A stretch of DNA of 64,000 bases from Alloalcanivorax dieselolei B5 (GTDB taxonomy: Bacteria > Pseudomonadota > Gammaproteobacteria > Pseudomonadales > Alcanivoracaceae): positions 248,001-312,000 of the forward strand of contig NC_018691.1 in assembly GCF_000300005.1 (NCBI RefSeq), in the 5' to 3' direction. Positions 46,238-64,000 of the stretch are shown in pieces (position 1 is the first letter of the stretch; each line of letters begins with the position of its first letter). The notes under the pieces are model-generated. The model was given only the letters and a program-made list of their open reading frames with translations. It did not search any database and was not told the origin of the DNA. A program made the position numbers and the translations under genes.

Positions 46238-47587
46238 ATGTTCGGACCTTCCCCCCTGCGTCGCGGTGGCATCGCGGCCCTGTCCCTTTCGGTCGCCGCT
46301 TCGATTGCTCCCCCGGCCTTCGCCGCCATGGGTAACACCGCCAGCAGCTATGGCCTTTTCCCTGGTGATGTGGCATCCGCTCAGGCCCTTTCCATGTTCA
46401 ATCCGCAGGCCTCGTCGCTGTATTACAACCCGTCTTATCTGATCAAGGACCCCCGTGGCGAATTGACCATCGGCTTCCTGCACGCCGAGCAGGAGCTGGA
46501 TGGCAGGAGCCTGGGGGGCGCCGCTCCGGCCACACGCGACGGTAACCTGCTTGATGACAGCCGCAGCCAGCAGCAATTGATCGCGCTGAAAACCGATCTG
46601 TCCAGCATCACCAAATTCGAACATCCGATTTACTTCGCCATCATCGCCGGCGTGGAAAAATACGGGAAAGAAATGCTCTCCTTTAATTCCACCACGTCCA
46701 TGGGCGGGCAATACATGGAGTACGGTCGTCAACCGTTGTTCCTGAATATCGGCGGTGGCACCGAGTTGCTGCACGGGATTGCCGTGGGGGCCTCCGCCCA
46801 CGTCTCCCTGCGTTCCGACGCGAAACTGGTGGCCAGCTCCAACCTGGCCGGTGAAACCCAGTACGAAACGCTCGAGGTCAACGCCAAACCGGTGATCCGG
46901 CCGGTGCTCGGCGTCACTCTGGACTGGGGCAAGCTGATCTGCGGCAAGGGCGACTGCATTACCGATGGCCTGGAAACCGCGTTCGCTTTTCGTGGCCATA
47001 CCGAGGCGCGTACTTCGGTGGATTCGCGTATCACTATTCCTGGCACCGTACCGTCTCCGGGTATCGCGCTGTTGATCGATACCGTGGATTCCTACCAACC
47101 GGATATTTACAGCGCCGGGGTGCAATACCGTTTCAATGACCGGCTGCGTGCCGGGGTGACGGTGGAGCGGCAGAACTGGTCGGATCTCATGGAGGTGCTG
47201 GAGGACGACACCGTCAAGGATCAGGCGGACATTCACTTCAAGGACATCACCGTGCCGCGGGTCGGTGTTGAGTGGAGCGCGCTCAAGAACGTGAACCTGA
47301 CCGCCGGCGTGGCGTTCCGGGAATCGCCATTGGAAAGCGACCGCAGCCTGGACGTCAATTACCTGGACGCGGACAAGACCATCTACGGCGTCGGCGGCTC
47401 CTGGACTATCGAACGGCCCCCCATCCTCGCTTACCCGATGCGGGTGGATTTCGGTTACCAGTTCCACGACATCGACCAGCGCAAGTTTGATCTGACCAGC
47501 GACCGGGCTCCGGTGAATCCCTACGAAACCATCGAAACCGGCGGCGAAGTCCACGTATTCAGCGGTTCCGTCACCCTGAAGTTCTGA
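46238..47587 (+). CDS. FadL/OmpP1-like outer-membrane barrel protein (copy 1)
   Basis: 449 residues. The signal peptide ends AFA; the mature chain begins AMGNTASSYGLFPGDVASAQ followed by SSLYYNPSYLIKDPRGELTI, the FadL-type N-terminal hatch and NPA-like motif. The strands end SGSVTLKF, an aromatic terminus for outer-membrane assembly. FadL proteins take up hydrophobic compounds such as fatty acids, alkanes or aromatics. Copy 2 at 62203 has the same motifs in the same order. Followed 11 bp later by a large lipoprotein gene, a pairing repeated at copy 2. GGAGG precedes the ATG. Confidence 0.82.
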   Translation: MFGPSPLRRGGIAALSLSVAASIAPPAFAAMGNTASSYGLFPGDVASAQALSMFNPQASSLYYNPSYLIKDPRGELTIGFLHAEQELDGRSLGGAAPATRDGNLLDDSRSQQQLIALKTDLSSITKFEHPIYFAIIAGVEKYGKEMLSFNSTTSMGGQYMEYGRQPLFLNIGGGTELLHGIAVGASAHVSLRSDAKLVASSNLAGETQYETLEVNAKPVIRPVLGVTLDWGKLICGKGDCITDGLETAFAFRGHTEARTSVDSRITIPGTVPSPGIALLIDTVDSYQPDIYSAGVQYRFNDRLRAGVTVERQNWSDLMEVLEDDTVKDQADIHFKDITVPRVGVEWSALKNVNLTAGVAFRESPLESDRSLDVNYLDADKTIYGVGGSWTIERPPILAYPMRVDFGYQFHDIDQRKFDLTSDRAPVNPYETIETGGEVHVFSGSVTLKF

Positions 47588-47598
47588 GGAGTGGTGTC

Positions 47599-50500
47599 AT
47601 GCGAAGTAAACTGATCATTGTCGCCTGCGCCGGTATCCTGGCCGGTTGCGGGGGCGGCGGTAGCAGCAATCCGAGTTTCGACGGGCCCCAGTACAATCCC
47701 AAGGAACTGTATTTCAACTATCCTTTCGACGGGCAGGCCTATGTGGCGCCGTCCGCTCCGGTGGTGCTGGAGTTCAGCGATCCCCTGGAGGTCACCGAGG
47801 ACAACTTCCGCTTCACCGGCCCCGATGGCGCGGCGGTGCCTTTTGCAATGAAGGTGATGAACGGCGGCCGCAACGTGGTACTGCAGCCGACTACGCCGCT
47901 GGCGCCGATCAGTGATTACAAGGTCGCCATCATCGACCTGGCCCCGGATGGCCGGGTGGTCAATTTCCGTGACGGTGAATTGAACTTCTCCACCCGCCCC
48001 GCCCTGGAAGGGCCGTTGTCGCGGCAGCGTGCTTCGGACACCTTCGAGATCAGCGAGATTTTTCCGGACGATGATCAGTTTCCCACCGTGGATTTCTCCA
48101 CCTTCCGGCTGCGCACCTCCCAGCCGCTGGACTCGTCTTCCGTGGCATACGGGGACACCGTCAGCCTGACGCAGGGTGGTGAACTGGTGCCGGCCCTGGT
48201 CCTGAGCGGTCGCGACACGCTCACCGTGGACCCGCTGGAGGACATGATCCCGGGGCAGCAATACGTGCTGACGGTGAGCGGGCTCACCAGTGCCTTCGGA
48301 GAGACCCTGGCGCCGTTCGAGCGCACCGTCACGCCCCTGGATACCAAATCCAGCACAGGTGAACGGGAAGTGCTGGTGACCGAGGCGCCGGCCACTCACG
48401 ACACGCTTGGCTGCCTTGAGCAGGGCGATCTGCGAACCTCCGCGCTGACCGGCGATCCGATCAACTGCGTGCCGCTGATCAGCACTCTGCTGGCCAATGG
48501 CACCGCGTCCAAGCAGTCCGGCGATATCTACGCCGAACTGGCGTTCCCGCCCAACTTTCCGGACGTGACGCCGCTGCGCATCAAACGGGGCGGCATCCTG
48601 GTGGGCGAACCGCTGGACGTGCTGATCGGCGGGGAAGTGCCGGTGGGCTTCGATTCCGGCGCGGTGACCATTCAAGTGATGTCGGACGCCACCGGTTACC
48701 TGTTTCCCAACCCCAACTCCGATTCCCCTGACGCCGCCAAGAACGTGCGTCTGTTCATGGATCTCGCCGCCAACACCAAGGATGCCCGGGCCAACGGCGC
48801 TTTCACGCAGAACCTGATGCACGTGGAATTGGTGGGCAAGGCGATCGTCGAGGATGGCAAACTGGTCACCGACGCGCTCACCGTGGTGGAGCCCCGGGTA
48901 CTCGGCGTGGAGAACAGCCATGGCGTGCTGAGCTTCCATATGGAGTCCTACCGCGACCAGGAAAACGCGCCGCCGCAGCCGGCGGACACGGTGCCGCCCA
49001 CCTTGCTGGTGATGGACGACAATGGTGAGCAGCGGCTGTCCTGGACGCCGGGAGACGTGGCCGATCGCGCCGTGCCCGGTGAACCGATCACCCTGCTGTT
49101 CAGCGAGGCGCTGGACCCGCTCAGCGTTCGACCCGGCGAGACCGTTCGGTTGACCAAGGACGACGCGGCGGAGCCGTTCTCCTGGAGCCTGGACGGCAAC
49201 GCCCTGGTGATCCAGCCGGCATTGCCGCTGGCCTTCGGCGTCCCCTATGAAATCAGCGTCACCAACGGCCTGACCGATCTGGCTGGCAACGGGCTGCAGG
49301 TTCTGGATCCGCTGACCGGCCTCAACACCATTGCATTCACCATGCCGGAATACGTGGTGGAACAGGACGGCGAGGATGTGCGCCGCGCCCCGTTCGCCAT
49401 GGTGGTCTACCCGGGCTTCCCCTGCGCCAGCAGCCCCGCCACGGCGTCCGATATCGCCGCCGGCGTGCAGGGCGTGTGCCTGTCATCGAGTTCCGAATCC
49501 GAGCAGGTGGAAGTGGACGAGCTGCCGATCGTCGGCATGCCGTCCAACCGGCCGATCCGGGTGCGTTTCTCTCAGAACATGGACGCCGGCAGCCTGACCC
49601 TGGGCACCGCCTGCGGTCAGGGCGCGTTCCGTGTCGAGCGGGTGGGCGAGGACGGCACCTGCCAAAGCGTGGTGGACGGCGAACTGCAGGTGGAGGCCCG
49701 CGCTCTGACCTTCGTGCCGGAGCTGCCCTGGGAAGAGGGGGCTTTGTATCGCTATACCTTGGCTTCGCAAAGCGATGGCTGCAGCGGTGACGTGCTGTGT
49801 TCCAGCGACGGGTTCCCTCTGCAGACTGCCTTGCTGGAAGGCAATGACGCCAAGTCCGGCGGTCCCGACATGGACATTCTGTTCCGCGGCGCTGGCGCCA
49901 TGACCACGGTGTTCCAGGAATTGAGCAACCTGCCAAGCGTCGACGCCAACAGTAACTTTGTCGTCGACGAAGGCGAGCCGAGGGTGCCGGCGGGTACCCC
50001 GGATCCGGCGACGCCGGCCAACGCCACGCTGATCCGTCCCAACGGCGATGGCGGCAGCGGCCTGGTCAGCACCGCCAACACCGGTTGCGGATTCGAGGGT
50101 ACGCCACCTTATACCGAGGAAAATCAGATCGATTGCGACAGCGAGCGGATTCTCTATCTCACCGGTGATCTGAACACGGATATTCTCAATTACGATGCCG
50201 AGGCGGGTGGTGTCCCGGTAGTGATTTATCCGACCACCGTGGCGCTGAGCAACCTGGACGCTACCGCGGTGATCGGTCTGGATCTGGACACCTCCGACGG
50301 TGACAACTCGCTGAGTGACCTGCCGATTATCGGCGGCCTGCTTGGCGGCCTGGTGCAAACGCTGGGGGATGTCCTCGACATCCTGGGGCTGGAGGAGGCT
50401 GTGCTCGGCCAGGTGGGTAACCTGGGACTGGTGCCGATCGACACCCACACCGGCCCGAACATCATGCGGGTACGCTACAACGAGGATGCCAACGGCAATC

Positions 50501-50826
50501 GCACCACGCCGCCAGTAGGGCACATCATCACAACCCCGGACGGGCCGGTGTTCCGGATCACCTTCGACCTGCTGTTCGACGCGCCGGAGCTGAGCCTGCC
50601 GCTGGGTCTGCAGCACAATGTGAAAAGCCTGCCGATCGATAACGTGCAATTGGAAGGTCCGCTGGACTTCCTGCCCGATGGCCGTCTGTTCATCGGACTG
50701 GAAAATCTGGAACCGCTGAACGTGGACCTGGAGATCACCCTGGCCGGTTTGCCCGGTGGTCAGGTGAATCTGACCATCCCCACCGGCGGCATTAACCTGA
50801 GCTACCAGAGCGGCTCGATCAAATAG
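47599..50826 (+). CDS. Large Ig-like-domain lipoprotein partnered with a FadL-like barrel (copy 1)
   Basis: 1075 residues. The signal ends in lipobox LAGC, then GGGGSSNPS. Several Big_5-type Ig-like modules are visible: AYVAPSAPVVLEFSDPLEVT (about 40-120), FRLRTSQPLDSSSVAYGD (about 160-240), PITLLFSEALDPLSVRPGET (about 495-580) and RPIRVRFSQNMDAGSL (about 650-710). The C-terminal third has paired cysteines and a beta-rich end. There is no GxSxG, so no sign of the lipase activity of FadL-linked VolA. It probably sits on the outer membrane and serves the neighbouring barrel. GGAG precedes the ATG. Confidence 0.75.
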   Translation: MRSKLIIVACAGILAGCGGGGSSNPSFDGPQYNPKELYFNYPFDGQAYVAPSAPVVLEFSDPLEVTEDNFRFTGPDGAAVPFAMKVMNGGRNVVLQPTTPLAPISDYKVAIIDLAPDGRVVNFRDGELNFSTRPALEGPLSRQRASDTFEISEIFPDDDQFPTVDFSTFRLRTSQPLDSSSVAYGDTVSLTQGGELVPALVLSGRDTLTVDPLEDMIPGQQYVLTVSGLTSAFGETLAPFERTVTPLDTKSSTGEREVLVTEAPATHDTLGCLEQGDLRTSALTGDPINCVPLISTLLANGTASKQSGDIYAELAFPPNFPDVTPLRIKRGGILVGEPLDVLIGGEVPVGFDSGAVTIQVMSDATGYLFPNPNSDSPDAAKNVRLFMDLAANTKDARANGAFTQNLMHVELVGKAIVEDGKLVTDALTVVEPRVLGVENSHGVLSFHMESYRDQENAPPQPADTVPPTLLVMDDNGEQRLSWTPGDVADRAVPGEPITLLFSEALDPLSVRPGETVRLTKDDAAEPFSWSLDGNALVIQPALPLAFGVPYEISVTNGLTDLAGNGLQVLDPLTGLNTIAFTMPEYVVEQDGEDVRRAPFAMVVYPGFPCASSPATASDIAAGVQGVCLSSSSESEQVEVDELPIVGMPSNRPIRVRFSQNMDAGSLTLGTACGQGAFRVERVGEDGTCQSVVDGELQVEARALTFVPELPWEEGALYRYTLASQSDGCSGDVLCSSDGFPLQTALLEGNDAKSGGPDMDILFRGAGAMTTVFQELSNLPSVDANSNFVVDEGEPRVPAGTPDPATPANATLIRPNGDGGSGLVSTANTGCGFEGTPPYTEENQIDCDSERILYLTGDLNTDILNYDAEAGGVPVVIYPTTVALSNLDATAVIGLDLDTSDGDNSLSDLPIIGGLLGGLVQTLGDVLDILGLEEAVLGQVGNLGLVPIDTHTGPNIMRVRYNEDANGNRTTPPVGHIITTPDGPVFRITFDLLFDAPELSLPLGLQHNVKSLPIDNVQLEGPLDFLPDGRLFIGLENLEPLNVDLEITLAGLPGGQVNLTIPTGGINLSYQSGSIK

Positions 50827-50833
50827 GCTGTCT

Positions 50834-50874
50834 CACCCTCTCCCCCGGCCCCTCTCCCCTCAAGGGAGAGGGTG
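50834..50874 (+). terminator. Terminator/repeat stem-loop after the lipoprotein gene
   Basis: CACCCTCTCCC (50834-50844) and GGGAGAGGGTG (50864-50874) are perfect 11-bp complements, with an inner alternative CCTCTCCCC pairing. This CCCTCTCCC repeat is common in gammaproteobacterial intergenic DNA. It ends the FadL-like/lipoprotein unit. Confidence 0.6.
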
Positions 50875-50966
50875 TAGCATCCGCCGGTGGACGACTTCCC
50901 CGCTCAAACCGTAAACTAGCTCCTTTCCGCCGGTCCGGCGGTCTCGCGCTGATTTTCGGAACCTCC

Positions 50967-52484
50967 ATGCTTGAAAAGTACGTCAAACGGATCCTGCAAT
51001 CCCGCGTCTATGACGTGGCCCATGAGACACCCATGCATGCCGCGCCGCTGATTTCCCGGCGTATTGGCAATCGGGTGCTGCTCAAGCGTGAGGATATGCA
51101 GCCGGTGTTTTCCTTCAAGCTGCGCGGTGCCTACAACAAGGTGGCGGGGTTGTCCGAGGAGCAGCGCCAGCGCGGTGTGATTTGCGCCTCCGCCGGCAAT
51201 CATGCCCAGGGGCTGGCCCTGGCCGCCACCTCCATGAATGTGCGCTCGGTGATCGTCATGCCGCGCACCACGCCGGACATCAAGGTCAAATCCGTGCGCC
51301 AGCTCGGCGGCAAGGCGGTGCTGGTGGGCGACAGCTTCGACGAGGCGCTGGCCCATGCCCGCAAGCTGGAAGAGAAGGAAGGCCTGACTTTCGTCCACCC
51401 CTACGATGACCCGGACGTGATCGCCGGCCAGGGCACCGTGGGCATGGAAATCCTGCGCCAGCAGAGCCGGGATCTGGACGCCATCTTCATCCCGGTGGGC
51501 GGCGGCGGCCTGGCCGCGGGTATCGCCGCCTACGTCAAATACGTGCGCCCGGACGTGAAGATTATCGCCGTGGAGCCGGAAGACGCCGCTTGCCTGAAGG
51601 CCGCCATGGAGCGCAAACGGCGGGTAACGCTGCCTGAAGTGGGCTTGTTCGCCGACGGCGTGGCGGTGAAGCAGATCGGCAAGGAAACCTTCCGGGTGTT
51701 GAAGGACACGGTGGATGAGGTGATCACCGCCACCACCGACGAGATTTGCGCGGCCATCAAGGATACCTTCGAGGATACCCGCACCGTGTGCGAACCGGCC
51801 GGCGCCCTGGCCCTGGCCGGCCTGAAAAAATGGGTGGCGCGCACCAAAGCGGAGAACAAGACGCTGGTGGCGATTCAAAGTGGTGCCAACGTCAACTTCG
51901 ATCGTCTGCGGCATATTTCCGAGCGGGCGGAGCTGGGTGAGCAGCGCGAGGCGATTCTGGCGGTGACCATTCCCGAGAAGCCGGGCGCCTACCGTAATTT
52001 CCTGCAAGTGGTGGGGCGTCGCGCCATCACCGAGTTCAATTACCGGTACGCCGGGGAACACGAAGCGAATATCTTTGTCGGTATTCAGACCAGCTCCGGT
52101 GGCGCGGATCTTGCTCCGTTGCTGGAAGAGCTGCGAGCCGCCGGTTACCCGGTGGTGGACATGACCGGCAACGAGATGGCCAAGCTGCACATCCGCCATA
52201 TGGTGGGTGGGCACACCTCGCGCCAGGACCTGGACGAAATGCTGTTCCGGGTGGAATTTCCCGAGCGCCCCGGGGCGCTGCTGAAGTTCCTCATGTCGCT
52301 TGGCCACAAGTGGAACATCAGTCTGTTCCACTATAGAAACCACGGCGCCGCCTATGGACGGGTGCTGGTGGGCTTCCAGGTGCCCTTCGGAGAAAGGGGC
52401 AACCTGCGCAAGGACCTCAAGAAAGTCCCCTATCCGATGGTGGAAGAGAGTGACAATCCGGCGTACCGGCTGTTTTTGAACTAG
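50967..52484 (+). CDS. ilvA: Threonine ammonia-lyase, biosynthetic (threonine deaminase)
   Basis: 505-residue PLP enzyme converting threonine to 2-oxobutyrate, the first step to isoleucine. The catalytic domain has KREDMQPVFSFKLRGAYNKV (PLP lysine in SFKLRGA), CASAGNHAQGLALAA and IPVGGGGLAAGIAAYVKYV. The C-terminal regulatory half holds two ACT-like modules starting near REAILAVTIPEKPGAYRNFL (about 325) and EMLFRVEFPERPGALLKFLM (about 420), the feedback sites for isoleucine and valine. Length fits the biosynthetic, not the short catabolic, enzyme. Confidence 0.96.
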   Translation: MLEKYVKRILQSRVYDVAHETPMHAAPLISRRIGNRVLLKREDMQPVFSFKLRGAYNKVAGLSEEQRQRGVICASAGNHAQGLALAATSMNVRSVIVMPRTTPDIKVKSVRQLGGKAVLVGDSFDEALAHARKLEEKEGLTFVHPYDDPDVIAGQGTVGMEILRQQSRDLDAIFIPVGGGGLAAGIAAYVKYVRPDVKIIAVEPEDAACLKAAMERKRRVTLPEVGLFADGVAVKQIGKETFRVLKDTVDEVITATTDEICAAIKDTFEDTRTVCEPAGALALAGLKKWVARTKAENKTLVAIQSGANVNFDRLRHISERAELGEQREAILAVTIPEKPGAYRNFLQVVGRRAITEFNYRYAGEHEANIFVGIQTSSGGADLAPLLEELRAAGYPVVDMTGNEMAKLHIRHMVGGHTSRQDLDEMLFRVEFPERPGALLKFLMSLGHKWNISLFHYRNHGAAYGRVLVGFQVPFGERGNLRKDLKKVPYPMVEESDNPAYRLFLN

Positions 52485-52658
52485 TCCGGACGTGAGCGAT
52501 CACACACCTCGTAAACCACGGATCACGCCAGGTGAAAGTTGAGCGGTACTTTTGTTAAGAAAGGTGAGCAGTTTGATGTAACCGCTTGACTTTTAAGAGG
52601 CAAGTGATCATTTTTCGATCCAGTTCTCGTTTTGTTACATAAATTTTGCATTAGTATT

Positions 52659-52674
52659 CCATGCTTCGGCATGG
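52659..52674 (+). other. UUCG-tetraloop hairpin upstream of a small membrane protein gene
   Basis: CCATGC-TTCG-GCATGG is a perfect 6-bp stem with a C(UUCG)G tetraloop, about 50 bp before the ATG at 52721 in an otherwise AT-rich 236-bp gap after ilvA. It might be part of a 5' leader. An ATG inside it (52661) is in frame with the small gene but would be buried in the stem. Confidence 0.5.
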
Positions 52675-52720
52675 ACAGCCTTTTGAGAGTGATGACTTTT
52701 TCTTGGGGATTGAAAACACA

Positions 52721-52873
52721 ATGAAGAAAAGACCAGATGCACTGGTTGTCCTGGCGATCATTTTTGCCACCGGCGTTTTGGTGAGCACCCTCACCCACGG
52801 TGGCAATCAGGCGGATCTGGAGCGTTACGCCCAGTCCGCCGGTGTCAGCATCAAGGCCGATCAGTCACGCTAA
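52721..52873 (+). CDS. Small single-pass membrane protein, unknown
   Basis: 50 residues: a short basic start (MKKRPDA), one hydrophobic helix (LVVLAIIFATGVLVSTL, residues 8-24) and a polar tail. It could be an anchored small protein or an uncleaved signal. An in-frame ATG at 52661 exists but lies in a strong hairpin. The ribosome site is weak (GGGGA about 12 bases away). The last 23 bp overlap the convergent 5-FCL gene. Coding status is moderately supported by composition only. Confidence 0.5.
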   Translation: MKKRPDALVVLAIIFATGVLVSTLTHGGNQADLERYAQSAGVSIKADQSR

Positions 52874-53471
52874 TCAGTTGCGAGAATCCGTTACGACCGT
52901 CCGTTACGATAAGGTCCAGCGGCTGATCCCAGGGGGCTTCCGGCACCCTGGACAGCCGTTGACACTCAAAAGCGACGCCCACCAGACGGGGGCGGCGTGG
53001 TCTTCGCGCGAAATTCGCCAAAGTCCGATCATAAAAGCCGCCGCCCATGCCCAGGCGATGGCCGCGATCATCGAATCCCACCAACGGAATCAACAGAACA
53101 TCCAGTGCCCAGTCCGCCCGTGCCCGCTCCAGGCGCCGTGGTTCGCCGATGCCGAAACGGTTGGCGCGCAACCGTTTTCCCCGGCGCCAGAGATGAAAGC
53201 GCAGGCGGCCGCGATAAACCGGATCCAGCACCGGCAGATACAGGCGCGTGCCCTGGAAGCGGCGTTGCGCCAGCCCCGGCAGCGGCGATAATTCGCCGTC
53301 GGCGGCATGGTAGACCGCCACATGGCGAGCCCGGCGCGGTCCCAACTCCCGCCGCAAATTACGCGCGAACCGCCTCTCCGCCAGACGCCGCTCACCCGCA
53401 CCCAAAGCCCGCCGCCGCGCCCGTAACTCACGGCGCAACTGCTTGCGATCGGTTAACTGGGGTTGATTCAT
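52851..53471 (-). CDS. ygfA: 5-formyltetrahydrofolate cyclo-ligase
   Basis: 206-residue enzyme turning 5-formyl-THF plus ATP into 5,10-methenyl-THF. Seen: DRKQLRRELRARRRAL at the basic N-terminus, VAVYHAADGELSPLP, LYLPVLDP, and the ATP-binding GHRLGMGGGFYDRTLA with LVGVAFECQ. Unusually Arg-rich. It lies downstream of 6S RNA and zapA on the same strand, the conserved ssrS-ygfA arrangement in which YgfA can be translated from the transcript that begins with 6S RNA. Confidence 0.93.
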   Translation of the reverse strand: MNQPQLTDRKQLRRELRARRRALGAGERRLAERRFARNLRRELGPRRARHVAVYHAADGELSPLPGLAQRRFQGTRLYLPVLDPVYRGRLRFHLWRRGKRLRANRFGIGEPRRLERARADWALDVLLIPLVGFDDRGHRLGMGGGFYDRTLANFARRPRRPRLVGVAFECQRLSRVPEAPWDQPLDLIVTDGRNGFSQLISVTDRP

Positions 53472-53535
53472 GCGAAGGAGAATTCAAGAAGGAGGGCCGG
53501 ACCGAATAGCAAAGCGCTTTCTTACAAGCACCCAG

Positions 53536-53567
53536 CTGTCCACTGTCAACTATCAACTGTCCACTGT
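53536..53567. repeat. Short direct repeat downstream of 6S RNA
   Basis: CTGTCCACTGT occurs at 53536-53546 and again at 53557-53567, separated by caactatcaa. On the minus strand it lies between the 6S RNA 3' end and ygfA. Confidence 0.6.
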
Positions 53568-53574
53568 AATAAAG

Positions 53575-53764
53575 CGTGCCCCCCGGGCCGCCGCTGCGGG
53601 TGTGGCCCTTGAACCGTCAGGTTCAAGGCGGAAACCGCAGACCGGACCATCAGGCTTTCCGCTCGATGGCGGACATGCGCACAGGCCGGTCAATATTGGT
53701 TCCCTTTTGGTACAACATCGGCTCAGGGACATAACCCGGCTGGCGAACGGACCAGGGGACACTT
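53575..53764 (-). ncRNA. ssrS: 6S RNA
   Basis: About 190 nt on the minus strand between zapA and ygfA, the classical location. Read on that strand: a closing stem GUGUCCCC near the 5' end with GGGGGGCAC near the 3' end, the conserved CCCUGAGCCGAUG, the central GUCCGC...GCGGAAAGCCU, and CCUUGAACC...GGUUCAAGGGC hairpin before the 3' stem. These match gammaproteobacterial 6S RNA, which sequesters sigma-70 RNA polymerase in stationary phase. TATACT on the minus strand (53771-53776) is a fitting -10. Ends are accurate to a few bases. Confidence 0.9.
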
Positions 53765-53795
53765 GGGCTTAGTATATCAGGGCGGGGGCAACCGG

Positions 53796-54125
53796 TCAGG
53801 GCTTGACAGAAGAGCGGTTCTGGGGGGCGAGATCCTCAAGCGCGCGCAGCTCTCCCTCCAGCCGATCAATCAGCGCCTGCATACGGGCACTGCCGGTCTC
53901 ATCGGAAGAGGCTTTGGAGCGGGCTTCCAGTAACTCGTGGCTGATGTTCAAGGCCGCCATGATGGCGATGCGTTCCAGACCAATCACATTGGCCTGTTTG
54001 ACTTCACGCATCTGGGTGTCGAGATAGCGGGCGGCGCGCAGCAGATTGTCCTGCTCGCCGACCGGGCAGGCCACGCGGTATTCCTTGCCCAGCAAGTGAA
54101 TCACCAGCGAACTGCTATCGTTCAT
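53796..54125 (-). CDS. zapA: Cell division protein ZapA
   Basis: 109-residue protein that crosslinks FtsZ filaments at the division ring. The N-terminal globular part is SLVIHLLGKEYRVACPVGEQ followed by LLRAARYLDTQMREV; the C-terminal coiled coil includes RIAIMAALNISHELLEARSK and the last helix with RMQALIDRLEGELRALED. Typical length. Its ATG overlaps the zapB-like stop by 4 bp, so the two are coupled; 6S RNA follows. Confidence 0.93.
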   Translation of the reverse strand: MNDSSSLVIHLLGKEYRVACPVGEQDNLLRAARYLDTQMREVKQANVIGLERIAIMAALNISHELLEARSKASSDETGSARMQALIDRLEGELRALEDLAPQNRSSVKP

Positions 54126-54337
54126 GAGTCCTCCTGCTCCAGGGATTGCAGGCGCGTTATGATCGCCTCCACCCGGGAGCGGGCCAAGTCGTTTTTACGG
54201 ATGAGCCGGGCCCGTTCATCGAGAAGACGGTGTTCCCGCTCGCGCAGCAGACGATTCTCTTCGCGCAAACGGTTGGACTGACGCAGCAGGGAGTCCACCT
54301 GGGCTTCCAGTTGCCGCAGTTGTTGTTCCGTCGTCAT
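54122..54337 (-). CDS. ZapB-like coiled-coil protein (TIGR02449 type)
   Basis: 71 residues, almost wholly coiled coil with heptads of Leu, Arg, Glu: QQLRQLEAQVDSLLRQSNRL, REENRLLREREHRLLDE, and RSRVEAIITRLQSLEQED. Immediately upstream of zapA with a 4-bp ATGA overlap; this pairing is characteristic in Pseudomonas-like gammaproteobacteria. Probably a division-related ZapB analogue, from position and shape. Confidence 0.82.
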   Translation of the reverse strand: MTTEQQLRQLEAQVDSLLRQSNRLREENRLLREREHRLLDERARLIRKNDLARSRVEAIITRLQSLEQEDS

Positions 54338-54524
54338 GGCAAATCGGTCGCTGTTCGCCTAAGGTTAAGCCCCCGTGTCTCACTGCCGCGTGCCGCGCGT
54401 GTGGACGGAATTGAGAGCCAGCCGCCGGGAATGACGGCTTTTTGTACTATAGGTACGGCCCTGGAAAGGGTCAATGGAATTCAAGGCTTAGCGCCTGTTC
54501 ATAAACCGTAACGTGAAGAACCCC

Positions 54525-55115: not shown

Positions 55116-55175
55116 GATTCGGCGGCGACACCGCCAGTTGACGACGTTTTAAAGGCTCATGAGGAGGCCGCGTTC

Positions 55176-56498: not shown

Positions 56499-57667
56499 CC
56501 CCGGACGGGCCGCTGATCGTCGGTGGCGGCATGGCCGGCGCCTTGCTGGCATTGCTGCTGCGCCATCACGGCTGCCCTTCGGTGACGCTGGTGGAAAGTC
56601 ATCCGCTGCCCACCGAGGCGCCACCGGAAACGCCCAGCTTCGACGCCCGCAGTACCGCACTGTCCGCCGGCAGCCTGCGGGTGTTGGAACAACTGGGGCT
56701 GCTGGCGCCCTTGCTGGAGCGGGCGGCCTCCATCAACGAGGTGCATGTGTCCCGTCAGGGGCGCCTCGGTCTGACCCGCATGCTCGCCGGAGAACATCGC
56801 CTGCCGCGCCTGGGCGCGGTGGTGGAGAACCGCTGGCTCGGCTATTTGCTGGTGAACGCGCTGTACCGGGATGACGCCATCGAAGTGCGGGCGCCGGATG
56901 GTGTCCAGGCTGCCCGCCGGGTGTCCGACGGCTATGTGATGACGCTGAACGACGGCAGCGAGCGGCACACGCCTTTGCTGATCGCCGCCGACGGTGCCAA
57001 CTCGCGCACCCGGGACTGGCTCGGCATCACGGCCCGCCAGCAGGACATTGGCCATGACGCGCTGATCGCCAACGTGGCGGTGGCGGAGCCTCACCAGGGC
57101 AGGGCCTTCGAACGTTTTCTCGATGACGGTCCCATGGCGTTGCTGCCGTTGCCGGATCAACGCATGGCGCTGGTATGGACCGGCCCCCGCGATCAAGTGG
57201 ACGCCTGGATGGCCCTGGACGACGAACAGGCTCTGGACGCCCTGCATCAACGCATGGGCGCGGCGCCGCCGGCGCTGACCGCCATCGGCGAGCGTCACCG
57301 CTATCCGTTGGTGCTCACCGAGGCCTGCGCCCAGGCGGTGCCGTTCGGTGCGGTGGTGGGGAATGCCGCCCATACTTTGCATCCGGTGGCGGGCCAGGGC
57401 TTCAATCTGAGCGTGCGCGATCTGGCGGCGCTGGCCGAAGCGGTGGGCGCCGCCGCGCATCCGGGCGAGCTGGCGCGCTTGTCGCAATGGCAGCAAGCGC
57501 GGCGTGCCGATCAGGCCTGGGTAACCCGGGCTTCGCGCCAACTGCCGGAATGGTTCCGGGTGCGCCAGCCGTTGTTCGCCCACAGCCGTCAACTGGGGCT
57601 GCTGGCCCTGGATCTGCTGCCCGGCCCGCGCCGGGACTTCGCCCGCCGTGCCATGGGACTGCAATGA
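56495..57667 (+). CDS. ubiH: 2-octaprenyl-6-methoxyphenol hydroxylase UbiH
   Basis: 390-residue FAD monooxygenase for C4 hydroxylation in ubiquinone synthesis. FAD motifs: [38 protein letters not shown] and GAVVGNAAHTLHPVAGQGFN with NLSVRDLAAL, where Asn-Ala-Ala-His is the UbiH variant of the usual GDAAH. Overlaps pepP by 4 bp and ubiI by 4 bp. Works with UbiI downstream in the same pathway. Confidence 0.92.
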   Translation: MTPDGPLIVGGGMAGALLALLLRHHGCPSVTLVESHPLPTEAPPETPSFDARSTALSAGSLRVLEQLGLLAPLLERAASINEVHVSRQGRLGLTRMLAGEHRLPRLGAVVENRWLGYLLVNALYRDDAIEVRAPDGVQAARRVSDGYVMTLNDGSERHTPLLIAADGANSRTRDWLGITARQQDIGHDALIANVAVAEPHQGRAFERFLDDGPMALLPLPDQRMALVWTGPRDQVDAWMALDDEQALDALHQRMGAAPPALTAIGERHRYPLVLTEACAQAVPFGAVVGNAAHTLHPVAGQGFNLSVRDLAALAEAVGAAAHPGELARLSQWQQARRADQAWVTRASRQLPEWFRVRQPLFAHSRQLGLLALDLLPGPRRDFARRAMGLQ

Positions 57668-58935
57668 CCAAGACCCCCTCTCTTCACAGTGACGTTCTGA
57701 TTGTTGGCGGCGGTATGGCCGGGGGCCTGCTGGCGCTGCTGCTGGCCGATCAGGGATTGACGGTGCGGGTGCTGGACGGCGCCGCCGAGCCGGTCTGGCC
57801 CGAAGGCGCGCCGGCCCTGCGCGTCTCCACGTTGAATGAGGCCAGCTATTGGCTGCTCAGGCACACCGGCGCCTGGCAATACCTGAATTCGCAACGGGTG
57901 CAGCCTTATCGGCACATGCAGGTGTGGGATCACGACGGCACCGGCGAAGTGAATTTCGATGTGACCGAGGCCGGAGCGGAAGCGCTGGGCTGGTTGCTGG
58001 AAAACGACCATATCGTCGCCGCTCTGTATCGAGCCGGTACCGACCGGGAGCGCCTGGATTGGCAATGTGGCGCGCCGGTCGCCGCGGTCAGACGTACCCC
58101 GGAGGGCTGGCGGGTGAGCGCCGGAGACGGGGATTACAGCGCCGATCTGGTGGTGGGCGCCGACGGTGCCCGCTCGCTGGTGCGTGAGGCGGCGGGCATT
58201 CCCGGCGGCCCCCGCGATACCGGCCATCATGCCCTGGTGGCCACTATTGAAACCGAGCGGCCGCATGGCGGTTGCGCCCGGCAGGTGTTCCTGGAATCGG
58301 GGCCTCTGGCTTTGTTGCCGTTGTTCGATGCCGCCGCCGATGCAGAAGAAGGGGCTGGTGGCGGCCGGCACTGTTCCATTGTCTGGTCCGGCTGGCCCGG
58401 GTTTATCGAAGAGCGCCTGGCGGAAGACGACGACGCCTTCGCCCGCGCCCTGAACCAGGCCACCGCCGAAGTGCTTGGCCCGGCCCGGCCGGTGAGCCCG
58501 CGGCGGGTGTTTCCGATTCAGGAGCGACACGCCAGCAGCTACCGGGCACCGGGCCTGGCGCTGGTCGGCGACGCCGCCCATGTGATCCACCCGCTGGCCG
58601 GGCAGGGCATCAATCTGGGTTTCCTGGATGTCGGTGTGCTGGCGGAAGAGCTGGCCCGGGTTCGTCAGGCCGGGTTGCCGCTGGCCGATCCCGCCGCGCT
58701 GGCCCGTTACGAACGCCGTCGGCGCGCCGATAACCTGCTTATGCAGCAGGCCATGCGCGGCTTCAAAATCCTGTTCGAACGGCGGGAGCCGGCGCTGCGC
58801 TGGCTGCGCAATACCGGCCTTGGCATGGTGGACAAGTTGCCGCCGGCGCGGCGTCTGTTCATTGAGCATGCCCTGGGCCGGGCCGGGGATTTGCCGCGAT
58901 TGGCACGTCCTTGCCAATCGATTATGGAGCCTTGA
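57664..58935 (+). CDS. ubiI: UbiI/VisC-family ubiquinone biosynthesis hydroxylase
   Basis: 423-residue FAD monooxygenase, C5-hydroxylase type. Motifs: [60 protein letters not shown] and [20 protein letters not shown] followed by [12 protein letters not shown]. The ATG at 57664 overlaps the ubiH stop (ATGA). Its 3' end overlaps the predicted Fur site for the following iron-transport genes. Other UbiH-like paralogues (UbiF, UbiM) cannot be excluded, but position favours UbiI. Confidence 0.9.
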
Positions 58936-58953
58936 TAATCGCGAATCATTTTC
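58934..58953. promoter_or_regulatory. Candidate Fur box before the iron transporter genes
   Basis: GATAATCGCGAATCATTTTC: the left GATAAT and right ATTTTC resemble the halves of the Fur consensus GATAATGATAATCATTATC, with one extra base in the centre. It overlaps the ubiI stop and lies 20 bp before the start of the ferric-iron binding protein, so iron would repress that gene. Confidence 0.55.
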
Positions 58954-58972
58954 GTTTATGGAGCCATGCCCC

Positions 58973-59983
58973 ATGACTGTCCTGCGCCGTTTGGCCCTGC
59001 CTGCGCTCGCCCTTCTCGTCGCCGCCTGTTCCGAACAACCCGAGCCGAAAAACGAGGTGGTGGTCTACACCTCTCGTAACGACGAGCTGATCAAGCCGGT
59101 CTTCGACGCTTACACCGAGCAAACCGGGGTTTCCATTCGCTATATCACCGACAACGCCGGTGCGCTGGCCGCCCGTCTCAAAGCCGAGGGAGAACAGTCC
59201 CCGGCGGATCTGCTGGTCACCGTGGACGCCGGCAACCTGTGGCAGGCGACCCAGGAGGATCTGTTGCAATCGGTGGAGTCCACCGTACTGGAAGGCAATG
59301 TGCCGGAGCACCTGCGTGATGAGCAGGGCCGCTGGTTCGGTCTGACCCAGCGTGCCCGTACCATCGTTTATTCCACCGAGCGGGTGCAGCCGTCGGAGCT
59401 GTCCAGCTATGAAGCGCTGGCCGATGAGCAATGGAAGGGCCGTTTGTGTCTGCGCACCTCCAAGAAGGTCTATAACCAGTCCCTGGTCGCCACCATGATC
59501 GAGCGGCTTGGCGAGGAGGAAGCGGAACGCGTGGTGCGCGGCTGGGTCGATAACCTGGCCACCGATGTGTTCGCCAACGACAATGCGGTGATGGAAGCCA
59601 TCATTGCCGGCCAGTGCGACGTCGGCATCGTCAACACCTACTACTTCGGCCGTTTGCAACGTGACAATCCCCAGTTGCCACTGAAATTGTTCTGGGCCAA
59701 CCAGGACAGCAGCGGCACCCATGTGAACATTTCCGGCGGCGGCGTCACCAGGAACGCACCCAACCGGGAAGCCGCCGTGGCGTTGCTGGAATGGATGAGC
59801 AAGCCGGAAGCCCAGAAGCTGCTTGCTGACGGCAACCTGGAGTACCCGGCCAGCTCCGGCGTGGAAGCGGCGGAGCAGGTCAAAGCCTGGGGCGATTTCA
59901 AGGCCGATGATCTCAACGTCAGCGTGGCGGGCAGCCGTCAGGTGGAGGCCGTGAAGCTGATGGACCGTGCCGGTTACCGCTGA
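58973..59983 (+). CDS. Ferric-iron ABC transporter substrate-binding lipoprotein
   Basis: 336 residues of the FbpA/FutA family. The signal ends in lipobox VAAC (LLVAACSEQ), so the protein is membrane-anchored. Seen: [75 protein letters not shown], and the iron-binding tyrosine pair in [17 protein letters not shown] at 58973 follows GGAG; an ATG at 58958 would place extra residues before the signal. Permease follows with a 17-bp overlap. Iron regulation is suggested by the upstream Fur-like site. Confidence 0.9.
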
Positions 59984-61559
59984 TCGCCGTCCGGATCGCT
60001 ATCTGATTATCGCCGGGGCGCTGGCCCTGGCGGTGCTGTTGCCGGTTGCCGTGCTGTTGTCCGCCTGGCGCGGCGACGAATCGGAAACCTGGCGTCACCT
60101 GGTCGATACCGTGCTCTGGCGCCTGCTGGGGCACACCGCCTGGCTGGTGATCGGCGTGGGCATCGGTGTGCTGCTGCTGGGCGCCAGCCTGGCCTGGCTG
60201 GTAGCCACGCAGGATTTTCCCGGCCGCCGTGTGCTCGACTGGGCTCTGTTACTGCCGCTGGCGATGCCGGCCTATGTGCTGGCCTTCGTCGTGGTGCAGG
60301 GGCTGGATTACGCCGGCCCGGTGCAAACCGCGTTGCGCCAGTGGTGGCCGGGGTTTTCCGGCTTCAGCGCACGCCATCCGTTGTGGGTGATCGCCACCCT
60401 GTCCCTGGTGTTCTACCCCTATGTTTACATGCTGGCGCGGCTGGCATTTCTGACTCAGGGCCGTGCCGTGATGGAACAGGCACGGCTGCTTGGCCGTGGT
60501 CCCTGGGCGGCGTTCTTCCAGGTCGCGTTGCCGATGGCCCGTCCGGCCATTGCCGCCGGCCTGGCGCTGGCGTTGATGGAAACGCTGGCGGACTTCGGCG
60601 CCGTTTCCGTCTTCAATTTCGATACCTTCACTACCGCCATTTATAAGAGCTGGTATGGCTTGTTCAATCTGGCCGCCGCCGCTCAGCTGGCGTCATTGCT
60701 GCTGCTGTTCGTATTGTTGGCACTGTGGCTGGAACGGCGTGGCCGGGGGCGTGCCCGCTATGGGGACCGCGGTGGCCGGCCGATGGTGGCGGTGCGTTCG
60801 CGCTGGGCCTGGCTGATGACCTGCTACGCCGGGCTGGTGGTGGTGCTGGCCTTTGTATTGCCGGCGGGCCGTCTGCTGTACTGGACCCTGGATGAGGTGG
60901 CACGCGGCCTGGATGCGCGGTTTATGTCCCTGGCGCTGCGCACGCTGACGCTGGGCATCAGCGCCGGCGTGCTGGTGGTGGGGCTGGCTTCGGTGCTGGC
61001 CTGGCTGCAGCGCCTGCGCCCACACCGGTTGATGCGCGCGCTGGTGCGCACGGCGACGATGGGGTACGCGCTGCCCGGCTCGGTGCTGGCGGTGGGGATC
61101 GTCATCGGCTTCGCCGCCATCGACCGTCAACTGGGGCAGTGGTTCGGTTGGCGACAACTGTTGGTGGGCAGTCTCGGGGCGCTGTTCCTGGCCTATGTCA
61201 TCCGCTTCATGGCGGTGGCCTTTGGCCCGGTGGAAAGCGCCCTGGAGCGGGTCCGCCCGGCTTTGCTGGACGCCGCCCGGACTCTCGGCGCCCCGCCGCT
61301 GGAAGCGGCACGGCGGGTGTTGCTGCCGATGGTGGCGCCGGGGCTGATCACGGCTTTGTTACTGGTGGGCATCGACATCATGAAGGAAATGCCGGCCACG
61401 CTTCTGCTGCGCCCCTTCGGCTGGGACACCCTGGCCGTGCGCATCTATGAACTCACCGCGGAAGGGGAATGGCAACGCGCCGCTCTCCCGTCCCTGGCCC
61501 TGGTGGCGGTAGGCCTGCTGCCGGTCTATCTGCTGGTCCGCCGGCTACGCCATTCCTGA
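59967..61559 (+). CDS. Ferric-iron ABC transporter permease (fused two-domain type)
   Basis: 530-residue inner-membrane permease containing two BPD_transp_1 halves, the FbpB/HitB form. First EAA-like loop: [20 protein letters not shown] near residues 170-190; second: [20 protein letters not shown] near 430-450. About 12 helices. Starts at GTG 59967, 17 bp inside the binding-protein gene. No ATPase gene follows; the next 640 bp hold repeats and non-coding DNA. The ATPase must be elsewhere or shared. Confidence 0.9.
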
Positions 61560-61576
61560 CCGCAATCCACGGGTTG

Positions 61577-61763
61577 CCACGAAGCCGTTGTAGGAGCTTG
61601 CCCTGCAAGCGAATTTCCCCACGCCGGAGGCCCATAATTCGCCAGCAAGCTAGCTCCCACAGTTTTTGCTACGGAGCCGCTGTGGGAAGCTTGCTTGCAA
61701 GCGAATTCTTGGAACGCAGAGCTATTCGCTTGCAAGGCAAGCTCCTACAGCGACTTCGTAGCC
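61577..61763. repeat. Two adjacent REP-like palindromes, family 1
   Basis: The first unit (about 61577-61677) pairs gccgttgtaggagcttgccc with a diverged complement (tagctcccacag). The second (about 61677-61763) pairs gccgctgtgggaagcttgc with ggcaagctcctacagcgac. They sit in head-to-tail order just after the iron permease. Confidence 0.8.
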
Positions 61764-62202
61764 CTTTTGTGAGAGAGCGATCAGCGTGTGGGCGCGTTTG
61801 AGAGGTGGTCTCTTCCTGTACTGCCAGTAACCAATATGTAACTTTCGGTAACAGATTTGCGCAAAATGTATAGTTGGGACTGTCGTAAGATTCGGTGAAC
61901 AGGTGGTCACTATATGGGTTTTCATATAAAAATAATGAGTAAAAAATGCATCGCTGTTCCCGAAAATTTCCGAATTTTAGCGGCTTTTTCTAATAATAAA
62001 GAACCAGTTGGCCCTATATGACCGGATCCAAAGTAGTAAATTGAAGGATCAGTTAACAAATGAAAACTAAAGGTTGCCCAGAGCTCCATTCGCTCGTTAT
62101 CCTGTAGACGATACTTGGCAGATTGTTACCCCCTCCAGGTATCCCTCTACCTCGAATAACAAGCGTCTTGCCGTTTCCCGAACGGCGAATGGAGATGTAC
62201 CC
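61764..62202. other. AT-rich intergenic region upstream of FadL-like copy 2
   Basis: About 440 bp, clearly richer in A and T than the rest of the window between 61850 and 62070 (for example tataaaaataatgagtaaa near 61925). It probably holds the promoter and operators for the FadL-like/lipoprotein pair. No gene, sigma-54 element or well-spaced sigma-70 promoter could be assigned with confidence. Confidence 0.5.
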
Positions 62203-63561
62203 ATGAAAAAGAACAAGGTGCTTCAGGGAGCTGCCCTGGTAGCTTCCATGGGCGTGCTCAGTGGCCAGGCCATGGCGAGCATGGGCAACATCGGAACGAC
62301 CTATGGCGTGCTGCCGTCCGACATCGCTTCCGCTCAAGGGCTTTCCCTGTTCAATACCCAGGTTTCCGCCGTCTACTACAACCCGGCTTACCTCGCCAAG
62401 GATCCCCGTGGTGAGTTGACCTTCGGCTTGCTGCACGCGGAGCACGAACTGCGCGCCAACAGCCTGGGTGGCGCCGCGCCGCCGATCCGCAACGGAGACG
62501 TGCTGCAGGACTCCCCGTCACAGCACGTTCTGGTGGGGATGAAAACCGATCTGAGTTCCATGACCCGTTTCAAACATCCGATCTACATGGGTGTGATGCT
62601 GGGCGTGGAAAAATACGGTGAAGAGATGATGGCGTTCGAGTCCGCCACCTCCAACGAAGGGCAGTACTTCGAATATGGCCGCCAGCCGCTGTTCCTGGTG
62701 CTCGGCGGCGCCACTCAGATCTGGCGTGGTCTGGACGCCGGCGCCTCCGCCCGGCTGACTCTGCATTCCGACGCGGAACTGCGCGCCACCACCACCCTGG
62801 GTGGTGAGACCAGCTATGAATCCCTGAACGTTTCCGCCAAACCCTCGATCCGTCCGATCGTCAGCATGAACATGGATTGGGGCGAGAGTTTCTGCCCCGA
62901 CGGCGGGTGCTGGTACAACGGCCTGGAAACCGCGTTGTCCTATCGCGGCTACTCCAATACCAAGACCACCGTTGATGCCAACACGGTGATTCCCGGCACC
63001 ATCGGCGAACCCGGCCTGTCCCTGGCGGTGACCACCCTGGACTCCTACCAGCCGGACATCATCGCCCTGGGTCTGCTTTACGGTAAGGAGCGTTTCCGTG
63101 TCGGTGTCAGTGCGGAGCTGCAGCGCTGGTCAGACCTGGAAGACGAATTCAAAGGCGACACCATCAAGGACCAGGCCGTGGAAGACGGCATTGGTGTGCT
63201 CGAATTCAAGGACATTGTTATTCCGCGCATCGGCGCCGAGTTCAAGGTGTCGCCGAACTACACGCTCACCGGCGGGGTCGCCTACAGCAAATCGCCGCTG
63301 GACTCCGATGCCTCGCTGGACGTGAACTACCTGGATGCCGACAAACTGATCGTCGGCCTCGGGCTCACCGCCCAGTTCGATGATCCCCACTTCTTCGCCT
63401 TCCCGGTGCGCTTCGACCTGGCTTACCAGTATCAGAAGCTGCGGCCGCGGGACTTCGACCTGTACGCCACCAATTCCCCCAGCTACCCGCAATCCTACGA
63501 GCGGGTGGAAGCGGAAGGTGACGTTCACGTCTTCGCCGGTTCGGTAACCCTGAAGTTCTAA
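62203..63561 (+). CDS. FadL/OmpP1-like outer-membrane barrel protein (copy 2)
   Basis: 452 residues, clearly paralogous to copy 1 at 46238. The signal peptide ends AMA; then SMGNIGTTYGVLPSDIASAQ, VSAVYYNPAYLAKDPRGELT, FGLLHAEHELRANSLGGAAP, EYGRQPLFLVLGGATQIWRG, LDSYQPDIIALGLLYG, SLDVNYLDADKLIVGLG and the ending SVTLKF. Copy 1 has the same blocks in the same order. The ATG at 62203 follows GGAG at eight bases; an in-frame ATG at 62074 lacks a signal peptide. Likely imports hydrophobic substrate; probably co-transcribed with the lipoprotein that follows 12 bp later. Confidence 0.82.
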   Translation: MKKNKVLQGAALVASMGVLSGQAMASMGNIGTTYGVLPSDIASAQGLSLFNTQVSAVYYNPAYLAKDPRGELTFGLLHAEHELRANSLGGAAPPIRNGDVLQDSPSQHVLVGMKTDLSSMTRFKHPIYMGVMLGVEKYGEEMMAFESATSNEGQYFEYGRQPLFLVLGGATQIWRGLDAGASARLTLHSDAELRATTTLGGETSYESLNVSAKPSIRPIVSMNMDWGESFCPDGGCWYNGLETALSYRGYSNTKTTVDANTVIPGTIGEPGLSLAVTTLDSYQPDIIALGLLYGKERFRVGVSAELQRWSDLEDEFKGDTIKDQAVEDGIGVLEFKDIVIPRIGAEFKVSPNYTLTGGVAYSKSPLDSDASLDVNYLDADKLIVGLGLTAQFDDPHFFAFPVRFDLAYQYQKLRPRDFDLYATNSPSYPQSYERVEAEGDVHVFAGSVTLKF

Positions 63562-63573
63562 CGGAGGCCTCCC

Positions 63574-64000
63574 ATGAACATGCGTATCGTGTTGGCGCTG
63601 TGTGGCGCCGCGTTACTGACCGCCTGCGGCGGTGGTGGCGGCAGCAGTCAGACCGTGGACTTCAGTCCCTGGGAACAGATCGAGCTGTATTACAGCTACC
63701 CCTATAACGCCCAGGCCGGTGTGTCCCCGAACGCACCGCTGGTACTGGCGTTTTCCGAAGCCGTGCCGCAACTGAGCGCGGATCAGTTCTCCCTGCAGGG
63801 CCCGGAGGGCGCCGTCGAGCTGACTCTGAAACAGGTCAACGGCGACAAGAGTGTGGTGCTGACGCCGGCCGCGCCGTTGGCGGTGAACAGTGAATACACC
63901 CTGACCCTGAACGGGATCGGCGAGGACGGTGATAAGGAACTGCTGCCCGGCGGCCAACTGGCCTTCTCCACCCGGCCGGCGCTGGAAGGGGCCCGGCAAG
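63574..64000 (+). CDS. Ig-like-domain lipoprotein partnered with FadL-like copy 2 (cut by window end)
   Basis: The first 142 residues are visible. The signal ends in lipobox LTAC, then GGGGGSSQT; the first Ig-like module follows: SYPYNAQAGVSPNAPLVLAF, SADQFSLQGPEGAVELTLKQ, SVVLTPAAPLAVNSEYTLTL and the end LAFSTRPALEGARQ. This aligns along its length with the start of the copy 1 lipoprotein (NYPFDGQAYVAPSAPVVLEF ... LNFSTRPALEG). GGAGG precedes the ATG. Total length and the rest of the domains are outside the window. Confidence 0.8.
   Translation, partial: MNMRIVLALCGAALLTACGGGGGSSQTVDFSPWEQIELYYSYPYNAQAGVSPNAPLVLAFSEAVPQLSADQFSLQGPEGAVELTLKQVNGDKSVVLTPAAPLAVNSEYTLTLNGIGEDGDKELLPGGQLAFSTRPALEGARQ

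What the first reader, a model, noticed from the sequence alone, without database searches (positions are those of the whole stretch)
46238..64000. Two copies of a FadL-like barrel plus large Ig-like lipoprotein module
Genes at 46238 and 62203 are clear paralogues (shared MGN...YG, YYNP.YL.KDPRGELT, LDVNYLDADK and SVTLKF blocks). Each is followed 11-12 bp later by a lipoprotein gene whose products also align (YPF/Y...QA, FSTRPALEG). Conserved pairing through duplication implies the two products work together. FadL-linked VolA is a lysophospholipase, but here no GxSxG exists, so the lipoprotein may be a surface receptor, a plug or a substrate-capturing scaffold for hydrophobic compounds. It may form an uncharacterised outer-membrane uptake complex.
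Basis: partly seen in the sequence, partly recalled or inferred. Interest (0 to 1): 0.78.

Follow-up and report, generated by a model that had tools for sequence, protein, structure and literature searches.

The report
Alkane-uptake barrel and lipoprotein pair
These two gene pairs belong to a known oil-uptake system (AupA and AupB) of marine bacteria; what looks new is that the lipoprotein partner has a steady half and a half that differs sharply between close relatives, and that some of its relatives sit beside a different kind of outer-membrane channel.

Summary
In detail: two paralogous pairs, each a FadL-family barrel followed 11 or 12 bp later by a large Ig-like lipoprotein (the second runs past the window). 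The genome carries six such pairs. The system is not uncharacterised: it matches the AupA/AupB alkane-uptake operon of Mounier et al. 2018, whose two proteins co-immunoprecipitate and are needed for micellar hexadecane uptake. The window barrels score below NCBI's AupA equivalog cut-off, so I call them AupA-like. Three points I did not find in the papers searched: (1) a lipobox with Asp at +2 in only 5 of 91 copies, which predicts the outer membrane, against the published inner-membrane fractionation; (2) in 14 of 23 compared gene pairs (most chosen because they looked split), aupB DNA is 83-96% identical to codon ~461-594, then drops to 36-48%; in three loci similarity resumes downstream. Window copy 1 lacks this drop; copy 2 shows a milder one near its C-terminus; (3) seven AupB relatives sit beside an OmpW-family barrel instead of AupA, six of them also beside a DUF748/AsmA-like protein. 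Alkane uptake here is inferred by homology; AupB's side of the membrane and the role of its variable half remain open.

The parts
46238..47587 (+). aupA-like gene 1: FadL/Toluene_X outer-membrane barrel, 449 aa
   Evidence: Pfam Toluene_X 9.9e-14; NCBIfam NF041571 AupA 514 bits, E=2.2e-154, below the curated cut-off of 840
47599..50826 (+). aupB-like gene 1: Ig-like lipoprotein, 1075 aa, lipobox LAGC-G (Cys17)
   Evidence: AF2 model mean pLDDT 83.5, pTM 0.83
47695..48348 (+). AupB1 residues 33-250: two Ig/CopC-like domains (33-134, 147-250)
48361..48996 (+). AupB1 residues 255-466: conserved non-Ig beta domain, barrel-like when folded alone
48997..50823 (+). AupB1 residues 467-1075: two more Ig-like domains and a C-terminal beta domain; the half that varies sharply in other aupB loci (stable in this copy)
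62203..63561 (+). aupA-like gene 2: FadL/Toluene_X barrel, 452 aa
   Evidence: Pfam Toluene_X 1.8e-11; NCBIfam AupA 621 bits, E=8.1e-187, below the cut-off of 840
63574..64000 (+). aupB-like gene 2, first 142 codons; lipobox LTAC-G. Continues beyond the window to G000:C1:314720 (1048 aa in all)

Best explanation
The window holds two of six AupAB-type operons of an Alloalcanivorax-like oil degrader. The AupA-like protein is a FadL-family outer-membrane barrel that lets alkanes enter; the AupB-like protein is a lipid-anchored partner made of four Ig-like domains and two other beta domains, which binds AupA and is needed for alkane capture or hand-over. Shown by homology and published work on Marinobacter: barrel fold family, operon, physical interaction, need for micellar hexadecane uptake. 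Inferred here: the lipid anchor; outer-membrane sorting (Gly at +2); that the constant N-half is the part tied to AupA while the C-half faces something that changes between strains (surfactant or alkane aggregate, or a predator or phage).
For: NCBIfam AupA model covers both barrels nearly end to end, E=2.2e-154 and 8.1e-187. 11-12 bp spacing as in the published operon, 11 nt. Published deletion, 14C-hexadecane and co-IP data (PMC5989066). Six copies, as reported for some Alcanivorax. Pairing 48 of 55 in named contigs and 48 of 55 in order-level genomes. AupA-AupB distance correlation r=0.81 over 52 non-redundant pairs; 0 of 5000 within-genome reshuffles reach it, the closest being 0.809. A sixth pair of the same genome lies beside an FMO-like flavin monooxygenase, an SDR, an alpha/beta hydrolase and a PF10118 hydrolase on the same strand. 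AupA distances follow the AupB N-half more than the C-half: partial r 0.55 against 0.24.
Against: Both barrels miss NCBI's equivalog cut-off of 840 bits; so do the four other barrels tested in this genome and the Marinobacter adhaerens plasmid copy, 719 bits. No expression or growth data for this organism were seen. Published fractionation puts most AupB with the inner membrane, against the lipobox prediction. Nearest neighbours of AupA and AupB agree in only 24 of 52 pairs, and r(AupA, C-half) is still 0.73.
Confidence: 0.82

Rival explanations
1. Published model: AupB works in the periplasm as a shuttle that carries alkanes from AupA in the outer membrane to the inner membrane, where alkane oxidation happens.
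For: Sucrose-gradient fractionation and co-IP (PMC5989066). AupB relatives in six loci lie next to a DUF748/AsmA-like protein, a superfamily linked to lipid passage between membranes (search listing and abstract starts). The 255-466 domain resembles 8-stranded barrels, among them YceI-type and DynF, and many of its strands have one uncharged, hydrophobic face.
Against: Asp at +2 in only 5 of 91 AupB-type N-termini. A half that differs this sharply between close relatives is not what I would expect of a protein hidden in the periplasm. Deletion mutants grew normally on hexadecane vapour, so OM-to-IM transfer is not limiting there.
Confidence: 0.4
2. AupB is a surface-exposed lipoprotein that captures alkane-loaded micelles or droplets and feeds AupA; the C-half sets what it binds or is under attack by phages or predators.
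For: Lipobox without Asp+2 in 86 of 91. Sharp constant/variable split in 14 of 23 compared gene pairs. Mutants lose binding or uptake of micellar hexadecane but not growth on vapour (PMC5989066).
Against: Published fractionation. No surface-export signal was looked for. Window copy 1 is not variable. No AupB1 match in 50,697 phage records, and no donor pool for the C-halves was found.
Confidence: 0.4
3. The variable half reflects neutral recombination or gene conversion among aupB copies in a transposon-rich region, with no selected function.
For: The variable copies of this genome (P3-P5) lie at 2.81-2.90 Mb near IS66 and rve-type transposase genes; the copies share DNA similarity only through aupA and the N-half.
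Against: No AupB in the 90-sequence set shares a C-half closely while differing in the N-half. The C-half of copy P5 has one close match among 45 other family genomes (99%), the next being 52%. Similar splits appear in other genera and in genomes of another family (G250/G210).
Confidence: 0.25
4. A FadL-linked surface lipase pair like VolA of Vibrio cholerae.
For: Same broad arrangement of a lipoprotein beside a FadL-type gene (VolA recalled and seen in passages).
Against: No GxSxG in either lipoprotein and no lipase family in Pfam or NCBIfam up to E=10 for AupB1 and the in-window part of AupB2.
Confidence: 0.03

Closest known systems
AupA/AupB of Marinobacter hydrocarbonoclasticus SP17 (MARHY0478/MARHY0477; PMC5989066)
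   Same: FadL-family barrel followed at 11 nt by a large partner gene; multiple copies in Alcanivorax; relatives annotated Ig-like (PMC7822026 passage; Marinobacter adhaerens plasmid)
   Different: Window barrels score below the AupA equivalog cut-off; the paper's text does not use the word lipoprotein and places AupB mainly at the inner membrane; the constant/variable split of AupB was not mentioned in the parts I read
OmpT-1/-2/-3 of Alcanivorax dieselolei B5 (Wang and Shao 2014; seen only as cited in PMC5174103, PMC6304351 and PMC12472514)
   Same: FadL-family alkane importers in what is probably the same species; some may be the barrels found here
   Different: I could not match their locus tags to this genome; no lipoprotein partner is mentioned in the passages I saw
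FadL/TodX family (Pfam Toluene_X)
   Same: C-terminal ~160 residues of both barrels match
   Different: Only the C-terminal part matches; FadL is said to work alone (PMC5989066), AupA with a partner
VolA-FadL of Vibrio cholerae
   Same: Lipoprotein linked with FadL-type transport (recalled; passages)
   Different: VolA is a lipase; no lipase signature here
AlkL/OmpW family
   Same: Alkane or hydrophobic-compound channel; OmpW-family barrels adjoin the seven distant AupB relatives
   Different: Eight-stranded family unrelated to the FadL-type barrels of the window

Membership tests
AupA (NCBIfam NF041571 equivalog) | score at or above the curated cut-off of 840 bits | tested here: not met
   514 and 621 bits; so filed as AupA-like, not as the equivalog
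AupAB-type operon | full-length homology of the barrel to AupA | tested here: met
   model positions 12-444 and 14-444 of 444, E=2.2e-154 and 8.1e-187
AupAB-type operon | barrel and partner adjacent, same strand, short gap | tested here: met
   gaps of 11 and 12 bp; all six pairs of the genome adjacent, gaps 9-35 bp
AupAB-type operon | partner homologous to AupB (H8WEC0) | tested here: inconclusive
   SP17 AupB sequence was not in hand; a Marinobacter adhaerens protein, 33% identical over 95% of AupB1, follows an AupA-like barrel (719 bits)
AupAB-type operon | needed for micellar alkane uptake; co-immunoprecipitation | not testable with these tools
   published for SP17 only (PMC5989066)
FadL family (PF03349) | Toluene_X above gathering score 29.7 | tested here: met
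   51.1 and 43.7 bits
Bacterial lipoprotein, outer-membrane sorted | lipobox and residue other than Asp at +2 | tested here: met
   LAGC-G and LTAC-G; 86 of 91 relatives without Asp+2, lipobox read by pattern or by eye. The +2 rule is recalled from enteric bacteria and is not proven for this genus
VolA-type lipase | GxSxG / lipase domain | tested here: not met
   no GxSxG; no lipase family hit
YceI/lipocalin-like hydrophobic-ligand barrel (AupB residues 255-466) | fold match | tested here: inconclusive

The most novel reading that the evidence does not exclude
AupB is a surface-reaching, two-part lipoprotein: a constant N-half that docks on the barrel and an exchangeable C-half that recognises the outside target (surfactant micelle, alkane class, or the agent that selects against recognition). 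The family is a general adaptor for hydrophobic-compound channels: it sits with FadL-type barrels in most lineages and with OmpW-type barrels plus an AsmA-like bridge in others.
Probability: 0.3. Interest if true: 0.75.

Novelty: new variant of a known kind. Interest (0 to 1): 0.48.

Why it matters
How alkanes get from oil or micelles through the envelope of Gram-negative oil degraders is still poorly understood. Placing these genes in the AupAB family removes the mystery of the finding itself, but three points can be tested directly: is AupB an outer-membrane lipoprotein rather than an inner-membrane protein; why does one half of it differ so sharply between close relatives while AupA and the other half stay the same; and do OmpW-type (AlkL-like) channels also use an AupB-like partner together with an AsmA-like protein. 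If the variable half sets substrate or micelle choice, it would explain why these bacteria keep up to six copies.

Tried and rejected
Lipase (VolA-like) reading: rejected, no GxSxG and no family hit. Phage or mobile origin: AupB1 has no match in the phage collection and one in the plasmid collection, a Marinobacter plasmid. Silent C-half cassettes in the own genome: the C-halves of P5 and P3 each gave six matches at E<=1e-20, all inside five of the six aupB genes. Donors of the exchanged C-halves: none found among 90 AupB stretches. N-half and C-half as a whole internal duplication: the Ig pairs align in order (E=7.6e-16), but the two non-Ig domains do not align better than shuffled columns (3 of 40 shuffles reach the score). 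Known fold for the C-terminal domain 765-1075: no row lies mainly there; it was not folded alone. Sequence search against solved structures gave weak hits only, best S-layer SbsC E=6.8e-5. OmpT-1/2/3 identity: not resolved. One paper search on hypervariable lipoproteins in Alcanivorax gave nothing to the point in the ten titles listed of 372.
Full report
What is there. The window is G000:C1:248001-312000 of a 4,928,223-base single contig. AupB1 is 97% identical to a protein of Alloalcanivorax balearicus and 96% to one of A. xenomutans; from recall, the contig length equals that of Alcanivorax dieselolei B5. The genome carries six barrel genes, each directly followed by a lipoprotein gene, with gaps of 9 to 35 bp. 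I call them P1 (window 46238), P2 (window 62203), P3, P4, P5 (2.81-2.90 Mb) and P6 (2.24 Mb, minus strand). The lipoprotein of P4 is frameshifted.

What it is. The NCBIfam model for alkane uptake protein AupA covers both window barrels nearly end to end, E=2.2e-154 and 8.1e-187, but both score below its equivalog cut-off (514 and 621 against 840 bits). I read parts 1-3 of 7 of the text of PMC5989066 (abstract to mid Results), its section 10 and its whole Discussion. [quoted passage not shown] mutants lose growth on, and binding or uptake of, micellar hexadecane but grow normally on hexadecane vapour; the proteins co-immunoprecipitate; AupA fractionates with the outer membrane and most AupB with the inner membrane. 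The paper reports up to six copies in some Alcanivorax. So the finding is a member of a known kind of system, and 'uncharacterised' is wrong.

Pairing. A scan of genome contigs with five AupBs gave 53 loci. In them, 48 of 55 AupB stretches with more than 300 bp upstream have AupA within 700 bp upstream on the same strand; the other seven are a solo copy in strain DG881, a short fragment at a contig end, two pieces of one broken gene, and three distant Salinisphaera copies. In the other direction, 49 of 51 AupAs with enough downstream sequence are followed by AupB. These loci were found with AupB, so this is not a random sample. In 293 genomes of the order, 35 have AupA and all 35 also have AupB; two more have only AupB (at most five AupA and two AupB candidates were scored per genome, so copy numbers are lower bounds). 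Of 55 AupB stretches there, 48 have AupA within 500 bp (C-terminal fragments of four split genes were left out). Of the seven without, six are the OmpW class below and one, in G043, has no AupA in the 3.4 kb upstream. AupA and AupB distances correlate, r=0.81, over 52 non-redundant of 61 complete pairs; none of 5000 within-genome reshuffles reaches it, but the closest reaches 0.809, and nearest neighbours agree in only 24 of 52.

Lipoprotein and location. The word lipoprotein does not occur in the AupB paper. Of 91 AupB-type N-termini read here (58, 26, six of the OmpW class, one Marinobacter plasmid copy), the residue after the lipobox Cys is Gly in 80, Ser in 4, Asn in 1, Thr in 1 and Asp in 5. 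One of the 80 (locus L033) was missed by my pattern and read by eye; the set includes broken copies and may include one species twice. Two of the five Asp cases are AupA-paired (L112, L113). By the +2 rule recalled from enteric bacteria this predicts the outer membrane, against the published fractionation; I cannot say which is right.

A constant and a variable half. Comparing orthologous loci, I saw that AupA and the first half of AupB stay close while the rest of AupB does not. Among 29 non-redundant pairs of loci with AupA at least 90% identical, 20 have AupB N-halves at least 85% identical, and 7 of these 20 have C-halves below 60%. At DNA level, 14 of 23 comparisons show a change point at codon 461-594, with identity 0.83-0.96 before and 0.36-0.48 after (the 23 share members, most were picked because searches had flagged them, and 'after' includes up to 900 bp downstream). 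The nine others: P5 of this genome against A. xenomutans stays at 0.90-1.00 to the end of the gene; P1 against two species stays at 0.82-0.97; P2 against three species drops near codon 780-850 (to about 0.55-0.7 per 300 columns); two Marinobacter-like pairs fall more gently; and one pair (L044/L042) shows no inner drop. In three loci similarity resumes behind the variable stretch: DG881/L044 (77%) and L097/L107 (82%), and two P5 loci, L118/L119 (91-93%). Copies P3, P4 and P5 of this genome share DNA similarity only through aupA and the N-half. The N-half of P5 has 97-98% matches in three other genomes; its C-half is 99% in one of these and 43% and 50% in the other two, and no better than 52% elsewhere among 46 genomes. 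Leave-one-genome-out, AupA distance follows the N-half slightly more than the C-half (difference in r 0.06-0.10; partial r 0.55 against 0.24). This looks like exchange of a homologous but divergent second half; I found no donor, so very fast divergence is not excluded.

Another partner. Six genomes of one family hold an AupB relative without AupA beside it. It is homologous along its length (profile comparison over 941 columns, E=2.3e-90, 29% identity). In all six the next gene is an OmpW-family barrel (E 9.5e-24 to 1.2e-20) and the one after it a DUF748/AsmA-like protein (E 1e-197 or better). A seventh case outside the order, G351, has the OmpW-family gene (7.8e-20) but I saw no DUF748 gene next to it. 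Salinisphaera copies have neither barrel beside them; an acyl-CoA dehydrogenase gene lies upstream in L074, and an MlaD-domain gene lies further on, on the other strand. So the lipoprotein family is not bound to FadL-type barrels.

Reading. The most likely function is alkane uptake by AupA with AupB as an obligatory partner (0.82). Which side AupB works on is open: the published shuttle and the surface-capture reading are about equal to me (0.4 each). The novelty lies in the variable half and the second barrel partner, both outside or only partly inside the window, and neither was found in my paper searches (open-licence papers only).

Noticed in passing
L078-L083 (G126, G234, G173, G214, G066, G254): AupB-like lipoprotein, OmpW-family barrel and DUF748/AsmA-like gene in a row, 6 of 6 loci; a seventh lipoprotein+OmpW pair in L094.
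   Followed up: partly
L023, L021, L046, L055, L056, L118, L119 and others: aupB genes with a constant first half and an abruptly different second half between close relatives.
   Followed up: partly
L024:4451-13360 (minus strand): Pair P6 is followed on the same strand by genes for an alpha/beta hydrolase, an FMO-like flavin monooxygenase, an SDR and a PF10118 metal-dependent hydrolase, which looks like a hydrocarbon or lipid degradation operon.
   Followed up: partly
L022 (G000:C1:2871203-2874794): The aupB of pair P4 is broken by a frame change near codon 470; its aupA is intact.
   Followed up: no
window 61576-61762: Repeated 39-42 base elements in direct and inverted order upstream of pair 2, like the REP elements of pseudomonads (label recalled).
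   Followed up: no
L020:5780-10607 (downstream of pair 2): PepSY membrane protein, TonB-dependent receptor and FecR genes on the opposite strand.
   Followed up: no
NC_017507.1 (Marinobacter adhaerens HP15 plasmid pHP-187), L120:4638-9168: An AupA-like/AupB-like pair on a plasmid, so the operon can be plasmid-borne.
   Followed up: no
L074-L076 (Salinisphaera): Distant AupB relatives (25-26% identity) without a barrel beside them; Asp at +2 in two of three.
   Followed up: partly
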